Shown: positions 51,818 through 64,000 of the stretch, one piece after another
Layout: every line of letters begins with the position of its first letter
Numbering within the stretch: the stretch's first letter is position 1
Assembly (NCBI GenBank): GCA_039545315.1
Contig: BCIM01000001.1
Location: 3,567,783-3,631,782, forward strand
Direction of reading: 5' to 3'
Source of the DNA: Kondoa malvinella
Taxonomy: Eukaryota; Basidiomycota; Agaricostilbomycetes; Agaricostilbales; Kondoaceae
DNA length: 64,000 bases
Notes under the pieces: generated by a model
The model's input: only the letters and a program-made list of their open reading frames with translations
The model's database searches: none
What the model was told of the DNA's origin: nothing
Translations under genes and position numbers: made by a program

Positions 51818-54800
51818 TCAAACACCCGTCGGGAACTTGCTCGCTGTTGGTGTCGTTAACGGTGCAGCATTGATGAAAGCGCTGTCGAGCAGCTCTGTTG
51901 CAGATGGTCGAGCAGATTGATCCCTATTTCCTAGTGTCAACACAACGTCAACAGATGTGAGAAGGGACGCACAGCAGGAAAGTCTGCTTGAGGAAATCTT
52001 GAGCTTCGGCGGTAATGTCTTTCGGTATCTCCGGCGAGGCAGACATCGTACCGATCTGCACTCTAATAAGCCAGACGCAGACATATAGTCGACCAGTAAA
52101 TGACTCACTCGGAAGAGCGCTTGCATTTGGTTGAGATTGACGTGAGGATGCGACCCGGTCAGCATCTCTATGATCACACAGCCGAGTGACCAGATGTCGG
52201 CTTTGCTCGTATATGCTTCTTGCTTGACCGCCTCTGCATTTGCAAGTCAGCAAAGATTCAGACTATGGCAAATAAGACACTGACCGGGAGACATCCAGAA
52301 AATGGAGCCTTGCAACGATGGTCGGTGCACGCGTGGATTCGAGAGAAGGTCTAGTCACTGGTCAGTATCACGTTGAAGTATGGCACATAATACTCACTGT
52401 CTTCCACTTTCTTGGAAATACCGAAATCGGAAATCTTGATCGCGCCCTTGTTGTCGACTGGGAAGATATGATTCAGACTACTATACGTTAGCAGATCAAA
52501 CCGCTTACCCAGAATATTGGCGCCCTTGATATCACGATGGATGATTTCTCGCTCGTGCAGGTAGTTAAGGCCCAGCAGGATTTGGCGGACAAATGTCCGG
52601 ACAAGCGGTTCTTCGAAGGCTCCGTAATTTCGGAGAAGAGCAACAACAGAACCACCGGGCACGTATCTGCTTGATGTCAGCTTCTGACCTTGTGTTTTAA
52701 GCCAAGGCTTACTCGAGGAAAATGTTCAGATGTGCTTCGTCAGATGAGGAGTCTGGGAAAGCAAGCTCAGTAGGATAGAGTCAGTCAAGCGAAAGACGCA
52801 CCGAGATACTGCACAATGTTCTCGTGCTGCAAACCCTTGAGCAATTCAATTTCGCGTTCAAGAGCTTCCAACATGCTCTTCTTTCTCGATTCGTTATGCG
52901 AGTCGCCAGATGGTACCTCGACTTGCTTGACAGCCATCAGAGTACCATTGATCGCGTTCATAGCCAAGTAGACCTGTTGGACTTTTTAGCAAGCTTTCTT
53001 GACCACAGGCAGATATAAGTTTACCTTGCCAAAACTACCAGCTCCGATGAGAGCACCCTTGATCCACTTGATCTCGGTCTTGGCTATGAATGAAGAACAT
53101 GGATTAGCAGGGTACACTTGCATGAAGTCATGCACTTACTGCCAGTAGATGTGAGCTTTTGGTATGCAGCATTCTCAGCTTCATCGTCCTCATCCTCATC
53201 TTCATCCTCGCTCTCCTCTTCGTCATCCTCGTCTTCTTCTTCTATACTGTGCTCATCCTCGTCCGTTCCGCTGCTCATTGCGCCTAGAGAAGACTTCCGG
53301 CCAGAACTGAACACGCTGCGCTTATCGTCATCGCCCATCTCGCTGCTTTCATCTGCACCAAAGACGCTCATGCTCATTCTGCGATGCTCAACTTCCGCCG
53401 TGATCTCGTCGACCGTAAGCAGACTGGCGGAATCGCTATCTCTGCCACTTCGCGAAGTCCGCACGCTGAGATGGGAAGACATGCGAGAGCCCATGGACTG
53501 CCTTGAGCGTGACCTTGATTGAAGATTGCCGTCATCTGAAGGCGTTCGTTCTGGTGAACCAGGTATCGAATCTGGCACTTTGATAGCTGGCTTGCCAGGC
53601 AGAGACTCATCGCTTAGCTGCCTGCCTTCGTTGACTGCAGCAGCGGCATAGTGATCTTTTGCTGGCAGGGGGGGAACAGGCGGCTCGTTACCAGATTGGG
53701 ACAGGTTACCAGATGATCCAGCGGAACTGACACTGAAGCGAGAAGTGTTTGGTTTGGTCCTATCCCAGCTTGTGACTCCGACCGCTGATCCAGCATTACT
53801 CCATTGGCTGTTAGGTCGCATCGACTTGCGGATACTGTTTCGGACAGTCTTGTTTAGCGTCTTTCGATCAGCAGAAGGAAAGTAGTCTGGTAAATGGCTA
53901 GCGATCAGTTCTGAAGGAGGACGATGACCAAAGAAGTGTCGAAGCTTGTTGCCTGAGCCAGACAAGAAGTTGTTACCACCGAGCGAAGGTGATCTTGTAG
54001 CTCCAGGTGAAGAATAGCTAGATTCCAGCAAGCCAGACATAACGCTGACTGTACTTGCGCGGTTCATCTTGTTACCGAACCGTCGTTCTTGAGCTTGATC
54101 GTAATCAGGGTGATTGTGTTGTCCATGATCGCCAGAACCGCTCGAAGGTGAGGAAGGCGTCGGCGAAGCTGGTTCGATAGCTGTTCCAGGTATGCGCACA
54201 TCCAGCATGGCAGTGGGTGAAGAAGGTGAGACCAAACCGCCTGGACCATCTTTTGCAGGTACATCTTCTCCAAAGAAATGCTGAAGCTTGTTCTTGAACT
54301 TGCGCCCTTTCGGGTCATCCGATACATTCGGTAGTTTGCGTAAGATGAGGCCTCTTTGCCGTTCAGGTCTATTGGCAGCAAAGCATATAGCTACGAGTTC
54401 CGCTTCTGTCAATACTTTGGCTGTCATGCGATGTCAGCATCATCCTACACCTCCTACTACCTCAGACTCACCTTGACCTTCAGGATTGATCGCAAATATG
54501 CCCCAACCGTCCATCTCAATGAACGCTTCGCTTTCACCATCCTTGACCCGAACAGCATGCGAAACTTGACCCTTTTCCAGTTTACCAAACTTTCGCAATA
54601 CCCTTGTGAAGATCTCACTCGCGTCTCTCGCTCCATCCAAGTCAACAGTCTTGCCCACCCCCTCGTCATTAGTGAACTTGACTGTTCTTCTGCGCAGATC
54701 TTCTAATGGTACTTGTTGCGCTACCAAACCAGAAGCGGTAGCAGAGACTGTTCCCGCTGCAGTAGTAGGTCTAGAGAAACCGCCTCTTCCTACAGTATAG

Positions 54801-55975
54801 CCATCTGTTTGTCTTTGGGCAGCTGGAGGTGGAAGACCAGCTGTGATGTTATTGAAGCTTTCGTTTATAGGCGAAAGGCCATGTGCTTTCGTGGGCGCAG
54901 GTCGAAGTGTCGCTATTTCTTCTCGAGTAGGAGAGTTGTTGGCATATGGATGGGTAGAGTAAGGTTGATATGAAGATGCGTTGGCTGTTGATGGTCGACC
55001 AGGAAGAGTAGCTGAAGGAACAGTAGAGTGACCCAGGGAGCCAGAGCGGAAGTGATTTGGGTTCTTTGTCGTGTTTGGCCAAGCGGGTTGGTATTTTCCA
55101 GGTCGGATTGTTTGCGAGCTATTTGAGCTGGCAGTTGAATTAGCTGAAGGTTGACGTTGCCGTAGAGCTGGCACGATGGGAGCGGGAGGCAGTTCGGAGG
55201 TAGGAGGTGGCGGCAGACTGCTTTTAGGCGCGGGTAGAGCGGGAGGTCCAGGCTGACGAGGTGAAGAGCCTCTTCGTATTTGTGAGCCAGATATTGAAGG
55301 TGACAGTCCGCCTGCAGCGCTTGTAGGAGCGGAAAGGAAAGATCCAGATGAAGAAGCAGAGCCATGAGAATGATTGCTGCTCGTCGTTCTAGGATTTGGC
55401 GAAATGCTGGGCTGACCTGGCCGTATAGTGTTCTGATGCAGCAACAAGGGGGGCGGTATCCGTTGTTGATTTCTCGCAGATCCAGACCTCTTTAGAGAGC
55501 TATCTGAAGCAGACGAAGGCATAGCAGCTTCCCTTGAGCTGGTAGAAAGGGACGAGTTGGATTGCGAAGATGTCAACATGGAACGTCTCCCGCCTGAAGC
55601 CATGCAAGCTGTTCTTAGCTTCTTGATAGCGACCACAATCTTGATACGATCGCCCACAGACTGGACGCTCATCTCTTTCAAAGCTTGCTGATCCACATCA
55701 AGCAGAACATCTCCTCTAATGTCGTTTTCACGAAAGATTTGCTCATACTGGGCGCACTTGTTGTCGCTGAGCCACTGTGCTACCATTTGATCGTCCCAAG
55801 AGCGAACCCATTCGAGAATAGAGTGACCGTCGGGCGGATGCATAGACCCAACGAGCGAGCTGGGATTCGATATGCTGTCGTTCCGGCGCGAGTGGTACGA
55901 GTCAGCAGAATGAGGCGCCGAATTGGCATAGCCAGATGCATCTTGCAAAGACGAGGAGCGACCTGCGACTGCCAT
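51818..55975 (-). CDS. STE11: Ste11-type MAP kinase kinase kinase (SAM, RA and kinase domains)
   Basis: ATG at 55975. Residues about 55-120 form a SAM domain ([46 protein letters not shown]). A Ser/Pro-rich linker follows. A Ras-association domain lies near residues 420-505 ([58 protein letters not shown]). After a phase-consistent intron a second Ser-rich region (53084-54427) ends in an acidic stretch. The kinase domain reads [84 protein letters not shown] and [17 protein letters not shown]. The stop is at 51818. It heads the pheromone, filamentation and osmotic-stress MAPK cascades. All catalytic motifs are intact. Domain order is as in Ste11/Byr2. Confidence 0.93.
53178..53250. repeat. Low-complexity TCATCC/TCT repeat coding an acidic run in STE11
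   Basis: Imperfect trinucleotide repeat (ATCCTC, TCATCT, CTCTTC units) that reads on the minus strand as a run of about 25 Asp and Glu residues. It lies between the Ser-rich linker and the kinase domain. Prone to slippage length variation. Confidence 0.75.
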
Positions 55976-56357
55976 CGCGTGTCGAAACTTGTAAATACAA
56001 GCGGGTTATCAGCTTGCAGGGGTATAGCAAAGCCTGGGTTATAGCTCGTTCATTCTTGGTATATAGCCAGTCGTTCGTTGCAGGAGATGAAAAGACTTGG
56101 AAGGCTCCAGACGAAAACATCATGCCATGAGCTCGAGCGCAAGTTTGCCTAGAAGCGGCGAACCAAGACGCTATTTCAGCATACAAAGCAATGCTACAGT
56201 ACTCTATCGCTCTTCTTGCTTGCTTTCTCAACTAGCTGTTCCATCTCACCGATGCTTGAAGCTAACGCACGAGATCAACCAATGCTTTCGCTTGATCTGC
56301 GTAGCTGAGCAGCCGGCTTGACAAGCGGCTGGACTCTTCCTCGAACCTAGAACTGGC
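55976..56357. other. Intergenic region upstream of STE11
   Basis: About 380 bases between the STE11 start and the amidase stop, both on the minus strand. No gene seen; it should contain the STE11 promoter. Confidence 0.4.
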
Positions 56358-61884: not shown

Positions 61885-64000
61885 TCACCAACCAAACATT
61901 ACGACGACCGCAGACACTTTTGCCTTCCTATTGAGAAGAGGTGTGATGGCAAGAGGGCAGATTCGGCCTTGAATAGTGTAAACTGAGCCTGGCGGGAACA
62001 CTCGAAGCCTGGGAGAGATCATGAAGAAATCTTGCTTGGCAATTTGCTTCTTGATTTCAGCTACCGACCCAGGGAGGTTTAGCTCTTCAATCAGCTGACC
62101 AAAATTGGCACCTTGAGCCCAGTCGCATGGTAAAGCGGGTGAAGAGAATCGGATAGTCAATGTTTCCGGGTCGAGGAAAACGAATTTGGCTGGTGTCTAA
62201 GAAAAAGCCAGCTTTTAGTTCGAGCTATAATGTAGTAAACGATGCCATTCACCTGATTTTGCCATTGAAGCACCTCTGCTGGACTGTTGAGCTGTGTCGG
62301 ATCTGAAATCACTTCTCTTGGCTGTTTACTACTTGTCGCGCCGAGCACTCCCAGAGGTGCGCATGCAGAAGTGGGCGCTTGAACTACTTCAAAAGTTGGC
62401 TTGCGCTTCATAGCTCGACCTGGACCTTGATGGCGACCCGAGGTAGCTTCGAATGCGAGAGCACTGGCATCTTGCAATCTTTGGTTCCTGTCCTGGATGG
62501 AATTTTCGATGCGAGTGCTGGCCACTGATTGCGAAGATCGAAGCGCTTCTCTCTGTTCTTGCACAATCTCGCTGTCGTGTCCTTGGGTGACATCGAGATT
62601 ATCGTTGAGCAGCCATGACAAGTCTGAAGTTTGAGAAGATAGGTTGAGTTGCTAGACAAACACTTTAGATTTGTTCATTCCGCAATCACAAGCGACCCAC
62701 ATGACCTAGGATATATCTGACAGCGCCAGTCTCGTCCCGTAGGCATTTCATCTGAAGTAGCACCCAAAACGGCGTCCCCTCTTTCGTGTAATTGATCATG
62801 AGCTCTACAAACAAGCACGCTTGATCAGCAGCTATCTGGGTAAAAATATAGCTCACATACCTTGTATGTCTGCACCCACTTTTAACGCCTTTCTGATCCT
62901 GGCAACCACCGCTGGCGAGCTCTCGGGTCCCTGCAATTCTCGACAGTTCATACTCAATGTTTCCTTCAAAGTGTATCCAGTCAATGCTTGAAATCCCTTG
63001 CTACACATCTGTATCACATCTGATCAGGTATGATGAGATCAAGAAAGCCAGGAACGTACGCTCAAGATCATATCTGGTCCATCGCGCAGATCTGCAAGAG
63101 GTTGATGAGTCATATTACTAGCAAGTGTTACGGGACTGGCTCACCTGCTAAGCAGAAACTGTCTCGGTTCTGCTGGCTCGTTTTGACGAACGCCTTTTGA
63201 GCTAGTGTCAAACGCAGCTTGACGAAGCGCGACCAAGAGTCTTCATGCATAGCTTGAAAAGCTACATCTGCTTGCTCTGCGAATGGATCCGGCAGGATTT
63301 GTAACTTGACAGAAGAGGCTTCGAGACATTTCCGTTCCGCGTTGGAAAGGTTGAGTGCAAGAGGAGCAGCCGTTGGAACGTGTAGATCATGTACACGTCG
63401 GCAAAGGCTTTGTAATGCTTGGAGATCGCTAGATAGTTGTTGGGCATTCTAACACATTTGGATCAGGCTTTGATCTGACAGATATAATGGCAGACTGACC
63501 AGCCAGAAACAAAGCTGCTCGGCGCCTAGTTCGCTTGCTAAGAAAGCGCCGAATTTGGCCAAACCGACTGTTCCGAAGGCTTGTTTAAGATGTCTCGCAA
63601 CAGGCAGAATCATCAACGTACTCGGATCTTCCAGCGCCTGTCTGAGACTATCTTGGTTCATAAGGGAAGCGTACTTCTTTCCACCTGGACGTGCAGACAG
63701 TTCGACAAGAGGAGCATTCTGCTCATGTTGCGGATTGTAACAAGGCAGGGTATCAAGAATATGGGTAGGCACTTCTTCCCCATTGCTGGACTCGTCTGAT
63801 TCGGCATTAGGAGAACCGAATTTAGCACCGCTATCTCGGCGATTGTTGGATGGGAAAGAGACCAGCGTTGGAGAGTTCAGCTTTGGTATTGACCATCTCT
63901 CGGATTTAGGAGATTTGGCGCCTTGGTCTAACGTAGGAGATTTCGGAAGCTGATACCACTTGCGTGATGTAGCATCTTTGGCAAAGGACTTGCGTCTAGG
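61885..64000 (-). CDS. RGS-LOV photoreceptor-like protein (5' end beyond the window)
   Basis: The readable part begins in a Ser/Pro/Lys-rich region. It enters an RGS domain (SLRQALEDPSTLMILPVARH, then LAKFGAFLASELGAEQLCFW; later LRLTLAQKAFVKTSQQNRDS). A LOV/PAS domain follows: DLRDGPDMILS, GFQALTGYTLKETLSMNCRE, LQGPESSPAVVARIRKAL (62871-63002), ELMINYTKEGTPFWVLLQM and DETGAVRYILGH-QLNLSS (62701 onward). The photoactive Cys of the NCR motif and the terminal Gln are kept. The C-terminal part has NFGQLIEELNLPGSVAEIKK, DFFMISPRLRVFPPGSVYTI and QGRICPLAITPLL, stop at 61885. This order matches fungal RGS-LOV proteins such as Botrytis BcLOV4, which bind flavin and move to membranes in blue light. 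RGS domains speed GTP hydrolysis by G-alpha. The start lies past position 64000. Confidence 0.82.

What the first reader, a model, noticed from the sequence alone, without database searches (positions are those of the whole stretch)
61885..64000. RGS-LOV blue-light receptor with a divergent LOV signature
The protein combines an RGS domain with a LOV domain. That architecture is known in fungi (BcLOV4-type) to couple blue light to membrane binding and possibly to G-protein signalling. The photoactive Cys is present in MNCRELQ, where the canonical motif is GRNCRFLQ. The preceding Gly-Arg are Ser-Met here and the Phe is Glu, and the Asn expected after GTPFW is Val. The Gln near the domain end is kept. 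These changes sit around the flavin and could alter photocycle speed or even light sensing. The conserved C-terminal segment supports a working protein.
Basis: partly seen in the sequence, partly recalled or inferred. Interest (0 to 1): 0.75.

Follow-up and report, generated by a model that had tools for sequence, protein, structure and literature searches.

The report
Probable blue-light receptor, one of two
A probably fungal gene at the edge of the window encodes a likely blue-light receptor joined to a G-protein regulator; a second copy nearby shows that one of its odd active-site changes is shared by both copies and another is found only in this one.

Summary
The gene runs 24 bases past the window; with genome sequence I get 8 exons and 589 residues: RGS, LOV, linker, C-terminal segment. 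LOV keeps Cys291, Gln354 and six other core flavin residues; Val333 replaces the flavin-contacting Asn, Glu293 the usual Phe. New: a full RGS-LOV paralog, B, starts 14.9 kb away, head to head. B has the same Asn-to-Val and Gly-to-Ser changes but normal NCRFLQ. So Val is old and shared; Glu and Met are private to this copy. Among 170 other Cys-bearing LOV rows (two query-biased, slightly overlapping sets) the Asn is kept in 168 and position 293 is never charged. Alanine mutants of this Asn in two model LOVs stay photoactive. The basic amphipathic linker proposed to bind lipid in BcLOV4 was not found by a crude score. Best reading: a working RGS-LOV photoreceptor whose signal acts on the RGS/G-alpha side; its recovery speed cannot be predicted. 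No other fungal RGS-LOV sequence could be obtained, so how usual these changes are in the family stays open.

The parts
63622..64000 (-). exon 1, in-window part (full exon 64024-63622): N-terminus and start of RGS
   Evidence: gene model; ATG at 64024 read from locus L006
63568..63621 (-).
   Evidence: RGS score 24.2 to 30.3 bits after removal; absent from paralog B
63500..63567 (-). exon 2, RGS
63145..63448 (-). exon 3, rest of RGS and start of LOV
63060..63091 (-). exon 4, LOV N-terminal part
62861..63008 (-). exon 5, LOV with the SMNCRELQ motif
62701..62804 (-). exon 6, LOV with MINYT and FWVLL
62253..62651 (-). exon 7, LOV Gln and post-LOV linker
61885..62196 (-). exon 8, conserved C-terminal segment of unknown fold, stop at 61887-61885
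   Evidence: 34 of 96 aligned residues identical to B
63200..63676 (-). RGS domain, residues 117-240 (introns included)
   Evidence: Pfam RGS 30.3 bits, residues 126-234; RGS14/RGS10/RGS4 structures matched; 77 of 124 identical to B
62637..63166 (-). LOV domain, residues 252-358 (introns included)
   Evidence: PAS_9 41.5 bits; aureochrome and phototropin LOV structures; 55 of 107 identical to B
62943..62945 (-). Cys291, expected adduct-forming cysteine (AsLOV2 C450)
62937..62939 (-). Glu293 in place of the Phe of NCRFLQ (AsLOV2 F452), Phe in paralog B
   Evidence: hydrophobic in 90 of 90 Cys-bearing comparison rows
62761..62763 (-). Val333 in place of the flavin-contacting Asn (AsLOV2 N492), shared with paralog B
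62649..62651 (-). Gln354, signalling glutamine (AsLOV2 Q513)

Best explanation
This is a full-length RGS-LOV photoreceptor gene, copy A of an old pair in what is probably a fungus. Its LOV domain most likely binds a flavin, probably FMN, because it lacks the loop insertion that the same genome's WC-1 LOV carries. It most likely forms the usual light-driven bond between Cys291 and the flavin. Losing the Asn at position 333 removes one hydrogen bond to the flavin C4=O and should change the speed or strength of the response rather than abolish it. The light signal leaves through Gln354 and the strand and linker next to it, and most likely changes how the N-terminal RGS domain meets a G-alpha subunit. 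The two copies have probably diverged in photocycle and partner, with Glu293 as a tuning or stability change of A alone. Shown: the gene model, the domains, the kept and changed residues, the paralog and the signs of purifying constraint. Inferred: flavin binding, photocycle and output.
For: Gene model with GT-AG introns and matching domains. Eight core flavin-site residues kept in both copies. Codon-position differences between A and B are 41/32/80 in RGS and 45/29/80 in LOV for positions 1/2/3; identity falls from 62% (RGS) and 51% (LOV) to 18% in the N-terminus. N492A in AsLOV2 recovers in 54 s against 80 s (PMC3903614, passages). YtvA N104A recovers in 620 s against 2100 s in wet E. coli cells, and changes at N104 are called moderate and not destabilising (PMC4161478, passages). 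RGS of A keeps DSWSRF, which aligns with DSYARF of RGS14. G-alpha matches exist in this genome, best 170 bits. MoRgs5, N-terminal RGS and C-terminal PAS/PAC, interacts with the G-alpha subunit MagB (PMC3248559, passages), and its deletion mutant is reported to hold more cAMP (PMC10056346, passages).
Against: Glu at position 293 has no counterpart in 90 of 90 Cys-bearing rows of one set, all hydrophobic there, so it could destabilise the fold. The LOV domain was not modelled. The C4=O Asn is kept in 168 of 170 rows. N492Q and N482A of AsLOV2 gave too little protein to study (PMC3903614). The Asn before FW that contacts G-alpha in mammalian RGS domains (recalled) is Gln in both copies, so GAP activity is not certain. 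MoRgs5 deletion gave no visible phenotype, and its authors suggest a role outside G-protein signalling (PMC3248559). In YtvA, changes at the other flavin Asn partly uncouple output (PMC10949197, passages).
Confidence: 0.6

Rival explanations
1. BcLOV4-type receptor: light frees a basic amphipathic segment, which then binds anionic lipids of the plasma membrane.
For: Same order of domains, RGS then LOV then linker then C-terminal segment, as described for BcLOV4 in PMC8993538 (passages). A basic stretch GRHQGPGRAMKRKPTF lies in the linker of A; 58 of 1000 shuffles of the linker reach its score. The highest-scoring basic amphipathic windows lie elsewhere: residues 229-246 of A at the end of RGS (1.95, no proline) and residues 9-31 of B in the N-terminus (up to 2.29); these were not set against shuffles.
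Against: The post-LOV linker carries net charge -3 in A and -1 in B. Its best proline-free window is reached by 917 of 1000 shuffles in A and 677 of 1000 in B; its best window of any kind in B by 411 of 1000. The score is a crude one.
Confidence: 0.2
2. Light-blind copy: Glu293 and Val333 together prevent flavin binding or the photocycle, and A serves as a dark partner or scaffold for B.
For: Glu293 is charged where 90 of 90 Cys-bearing comparison rows are hydrophobic. The Asn-Pro-like pair of the second strand is Met-Ile in A but Gln-Pro in B. A scores lower than B on PAS_9, 41.5 against 47.5 bits.
Against: Eight core flavin residues, including Cys291 and Gln354, are kept in A, which would be expected to drift if light sensing were lost. 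Val333 is shared with B. Alanine mutants of this Asn are photoactive.
Confidence: 0.17
3. Pseudogene or gene-model artefact.
Against: No stop or frameshift in the 589 codons of the model; third-position excess in the aligned domains; two intron positions shared in place and phase with B.
Confidence: 0.03

Closest known systems
Fungal RGS-LOV proteins (BcLOV4 of Botrytis cinerea; MoRgs5 of Magnaporthe oryzae; LovB of Fusarium fujikuroi)
   Same: As passages describe them: BcLOV4 has an N-terminal RGS, a LOV domain, a linker and a C-terminal domain of unidentified function; MoRgs5 an N-terminal RGS and C-terminal PAS/PAC; LovB RGS and LOV with the flavin-binding Cys in 663 residues. A has 589 residues and B 678.
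   Different: Here two diverged copies start 14.9 kb apart, both lack the C4=O Asn, and copy A has Glu in the photoactive motif. A basic amphipathic linker was not found by a crude score. Sequences of the known members could not be obtained, so whether they share the Asn change is open.
Natural glutamine-deficient LOV receptors (around 350 in PMC9098866, passages)
   Same: Natural receptors that lack one residue of the flavin hydrogen-bond network; that paper reports productive, if often attenuated, signalling without the Gln.
   Different: Here the Gln is kept and the Asn equivalent to N492 is lost instead.
White Collar-1 LOV of the same genome (C5:646726-647076)
   Same: LOV domain with photoactive Cys.
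   Different: WC-1 has GRNCRFLQ, Asn at 492 and an 11-residue loop insertion; A and B lack the insertion and the Asn.

Membership tests
RGS-LOV photoreceptors | RGS domain N-terminal to a LOV domain in one protein | tested here: met
   RGS 126-234 (30.3 bits, cut-off 23.9) and PAS_9 254-351 (41.5 bits, cut-off 27)
RGS-LOV photoreceptors | photoactive Cys and core flavin residues in LOV | tested here: met
   Asn290, Cys291, Arg292, Leu294, Gln295, Arg308, Asn323, Gln354 kept; the Asn at 333 and Phe at 293 are not. AsLOV2 numbering assigned by me from recalled AsLOV2 sequence
RGS-LOV photoreceptors | sequence clustering with known fungal RGS-LOV proteins | not testable with these tools
   0 of 49 and 0 of 79 returned proteins list RGS (PF00615); each search scored only the 7995 and 7998 candidates sharing most words; C-terminal search found none
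BcLOV4-type lipid-binding RGS-LOV | polybasic amphipathic linker between LOV and C-terminal domain | tested here: inconclusive
   none found by one crude score; linker net charge -3 (A), -1 (B); a proline-containing basic stretch in A is reached by 58 of 1000 shuffles
BcLOV4-type lipid-binding RGS-LOV | light-driven binding to anionic phospholipid | not testable with these tools
   needs purified protein
LOV photoreceptor (chemical) | flavin bound, reversible Cys adduct under blue light | not testable with these tools
   sequence is permissive; needs spectra
RGS GTPase-activating protein | RGS fold and G-alpha contact residues | tested here: inconclusive
   family matched and D-S-x-x-R-F kept in A (D-A-x-x-R-F in B); the contact Asn before FW is Gln in both; which residues contact G-alpha is recalled, from RGS4

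The most novel reading that the evidence does not exclude
A natural lineage of LOV receptors works without the flavin C4=O asparagine, a counterpart to the known glutamine-deficient receptors, and has split into two copies: B with a normal photoactive helix and A with a charged residue in it. The pair would then read different light doses, or serve different partners, from one fused RGS-LOV design.
Probability: 0.3. Interest if true: 0.6.

Novelty: new variant of a known kind. Interest (0 to 1): 0.42.

Why it matters
An RGS-LOV protein, BcLOV4, underlies single-component optogenetic tools, yet the natural role of these proteins in G-protein signalling is little tested. A pair of diverged copies in one genome, alike in one active-site change and different in the other, is a natural experiment. 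Swapping Glu293/Phe349 and Val/Asn between A and B would tell what each site does, and a working LOV without this Asn would show how little of the flavin hydrogen-bond network signalling needs.

Tried and rejected
Homologues: three protein searches. One search, with the C-terminal segment, found nothing among 101 candidates. I do not read this as rarity, since no hit was named as fungal at all. Considered and rejected: that Val333 is a peculiarity of this copy (B shares it); that the RGS match is spurious (it improves when the intron is removed); a wider segmental duplication (with 78 ORFs of the 7.5-kb locus L029 against the window and L006, only the RGS-LOV gene matches). The C-terminal segment as a hidden PAS: B gives PAS_4 at E 0.057 and PAS_10 at E 0.095, both below cut-off, A nothing; a single-sequence model of exon 8 has mean pLDDT 43, so no fold search was made and the question stays open.

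That was withdrawn: N492A and N104A speed recovery, but Leu at F494 and Ser at N414, which both copies also have, slow it in AsLOV2, so no net direction follows.

Papers: Glantz 2018 (PMC6099885) and a 2016 LOV survey are not held. BcLOV4 facts come from passages of PMC8993538 and PMC12941744; LovB and the cAMP remark from passages of PMC10056346. Eight paper searches were made. None asked for Asn-deficient RGS-LOV proteins by name, and most listings were cut, so I make no claim that they are unreported. PMC9308134, PMC10751770 and PMC3836802 were looked at in passages and added nothing decisive.

Full report
What is there. The window is a piece (contig C1, 3567783-3631782) of a 19.1-Mb genome in 20 contigs; the many short introns and White Collar-like genes point to a fungus (inference). 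The finding lies at the right edge of the window. I fetched the sequence beyond it and built the gene on the minus strand. A first model gave 607 residues. Comparison with a second copy then showed that 54 in-frame bases inside RGS, 63621-63568, start with GTACGT, end with ACAG and interrupt a conserved stretch. Taking them out gives 8 exons and 589 residues and raises the Pfam RGS score from 24.2 to 30.3 bits, cut-off 23.9, with the match now starting at profile position 1 rather than 11. The start codon, 64024, lies 24 bases outside the window. The splice sites are placed by hand and by comparison with B; there are no transcript data.

Domains. Residues 1-116 have no family match and align poorly with B. 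RGS covers about 117-240 and matches RGS14, RGS10, RGS6/7 and RGS4 structures. LOV covers about 252-358; the best solved relatives are aureochrome and phototropin LOV domains, E 2.5e-21. Residues 359-486 are a linker and 487-589 a C-terminal segment, conserved with B, without a family match in A.

The second copy. A search of the genome with the LOV domain alone gave two weak neighbouring matches on the other strand (E 0.05 and 0.08). They belong to a complete RGS-LOV gene, here called B, at C1:3646658-3649134, 10 exons, 678 residues. The two start codons are 14.9 kb apart and the genes point away from each other; other open frames lie between them. Identity is 77 of 124 aligned residues in RGS, 55 of 107 in LOV, 50 of 125 in the linker, 34 of 96 in the C-terminal segment and 20 of 110 in the N-terminus. 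Differences by codon position 1/2/3 are 41/32/80 in RGS and 45/29/80 in LOV, the pattern of protein-coding constraint. Two intron positions are shared in place and phase, out of 7 in A and 9 in B, so the duplication is probably old. Outside the gene nothing in the 7.5-kb locus around B matched the window or L006. Of the seven matches, four are A itself, two are B and one is the WC-1-like gene on C5; the search reads exon by exon and could miss more.

The photoactive site. AsLOV2 numbers were assigned by me from the recalled AsLOV2 sequence; A numbers are in brackets. Both copies keep N449 (290), C450 (291), R451 (292), L453 (294), Q454 (295), I466 (307), R467 (308), N482 (323) and Q513 (354). 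Both have Ser for G447, Val for N492, Leu for F494 and Ser for N414. Only A has Met for R448 (B has Lys) and Glu for F452 (B has Phe); B has Met for V463 where A keeps Val. I counted these sites in two sets. The first is the 93 proteins returned: 103 aligned rows including A, B and own WC-1, so 100 others, of which 90 rows in 87 proteins have the Cys. In those 90, N492 is Asn in 90, G447 is Gly in 90, and F452 is Phe in 84 and Met, Leu, Val or Ile in 6. The ten rows without the Cys, dropped before that count, are more varied; eight of the 100 rows lack the Asn and one has Asp at F452, all among those ten. There N492 is Asn in 78, Ser in one (L060, Microcoleus vaginatus HSN003) and Ile in one (L062, a Beijerinckiaceae genome bin); F452 is Phe in 80. 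Both sets are biased: they were found with A, B or A, B and WC-1 as query, and one of the two DNA patterns asked for Phe or Glu at F452. At least one organism, Actinotalea sp. M2MS4P-6, occurs in both sets, so 170 rows are slightly fewer than 170 proteins. Neither set holds another known fungal RGS-LOV.

What the changes mean. In YtvA the equivalent of N492, N104, bonds the flavin C4=O (PMC10949197, passages). In AsLOV2, N492A recovers in 54 s against 80 s for wild type, but F494L takes 206 s and N414S 685 s, and N492Q and N482A gave too little protein (PMC3903614, passages). That paper adds that other variants at N492 and neighbours typically lengthened the cycle. In YtvA, changes at N104 are described as not destabilising and moderate, with N104A 620 s against 2100 s in wet E. 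coli cells (PMC4161478, passages). So loss of this Asn is compatible with a working photocycle, while the net speed of A or B cannot be predicted; Val itself has no data in what I saw. Leu at F494 is common (26 of 90 and 67 of 80 rows). F452 is not in the list of flavin contacts as I recall it; the position is hydrophobic in all 170 Cys-bearing rows, so a Glu there is the more puzzling change. It may affect packing or speed; I cannot decide which without a structure.

Output. The review PMC8993538 (passages) describes BcLOV4 as apparently held back in the dark by its RGS domain and bound to anionic lipid in light, with a basic amphipathic linker between the LOV helix and the C-terminal domain speculated to do the binding. 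In A and B that linker has net charge -3 and -1. The best proline-free window is reached by 917 of 1000 shuffles in A and 677 of 1000 in B; with prolines allowed, by 58 of 1000 in A and 411 of 1000 in B. That crude test gives the lipid reading no support from the linker. Against me, the highest-scoring basic amphipathic windows lie elsewhere, at residues 229-246 of A and 9-31 of B, and were not tested further. The other route is G-protein signalling. RGS keeps D-S-x-x-R-F in A, while the Asn of the E-N-x-x-F-W contact (recalled) is Gln in both copies. The genome has clear G-alpha matches, best 170 bits, among 28 that may include Arf-like genes. MoRgs5 interacts with MagB, but its deletion had no visible phenotype and its authors doubt the G-protein link (PMC3248559, passages); a review reports raised cAMP in that mutant (PMC10056346, passages). 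I therefore put light-modulated RGS first, without certainty.

Other light sensors in this genome. A WC-1-like gene with GRNCRFLQ and a WC-2-like gene (named by eye), photolyase/cryptochrome pieces at three places, and single weak matches for phytochrome (27.3 bits, cut-off 27) and opsin (26.4 bits, cut-off 24.6). The RGS-LOV pair is therefore probably not its only light sensor.

Verdict. The change that looked most worrying, Asn to Val, is shared by a second gene, and alanine there is tolerated in two other LOV proteins. Of the two copies, the change special to this gene is Phe to Glu. Whether either is usual in fungal RGS-LOV proteins could not be tested here.

Noticed in passing
outside the window, G000 C1:3646658-3649134 (locus L029): Complete second RGS-LOV gene (B) with NCRFLQ and the same Asn-to-Val change, head to head with the window's copy.
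   Followed up: yes
L060 and L062: Two bacterial LOV domains with intact NCRFLQ but Ser or Ile in place of the C4=O Asn: natural LOVs without this Asn outside fungi.
   Followed up: partly
window 53084-56005, minus strand: Open frames with a SAM-like and an RA-like stretch that look like the N-terminus of a Ste11/Byr2-type MAP kinase kinase kinase (by eye, no search).
   Followed up: no
locus L007 (G000 C5:644000-650500): WC-1-like gene with a CxxC zinc-finger-like stretch (ECTKCGQ...LCRTC) after its PAS domains; PMC4831468 says WC-1 of basidiomycetes lacks the finger.
   Followed up: no
window 62253-62636 linker, minus strand: Proline-containing basic stretch GRHQGPGRAMKRKPTF in copy A without an evident counterpart in B.
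   Followed up: partly
residues 229-246 of A (exon 3) and 9-31 of B: Highest-scoring basic amphipathic windows of the two proteins, outside the post-LOV linker.
   Followed up: no
window 61888-62196 (exon 8), minus strand: C-terminal segment conserved between the copies with no family match in A; the B piece gives sub-threshold PAS hits (E 0.057), so a degenerate PAS is possible.
   Followed up: partly
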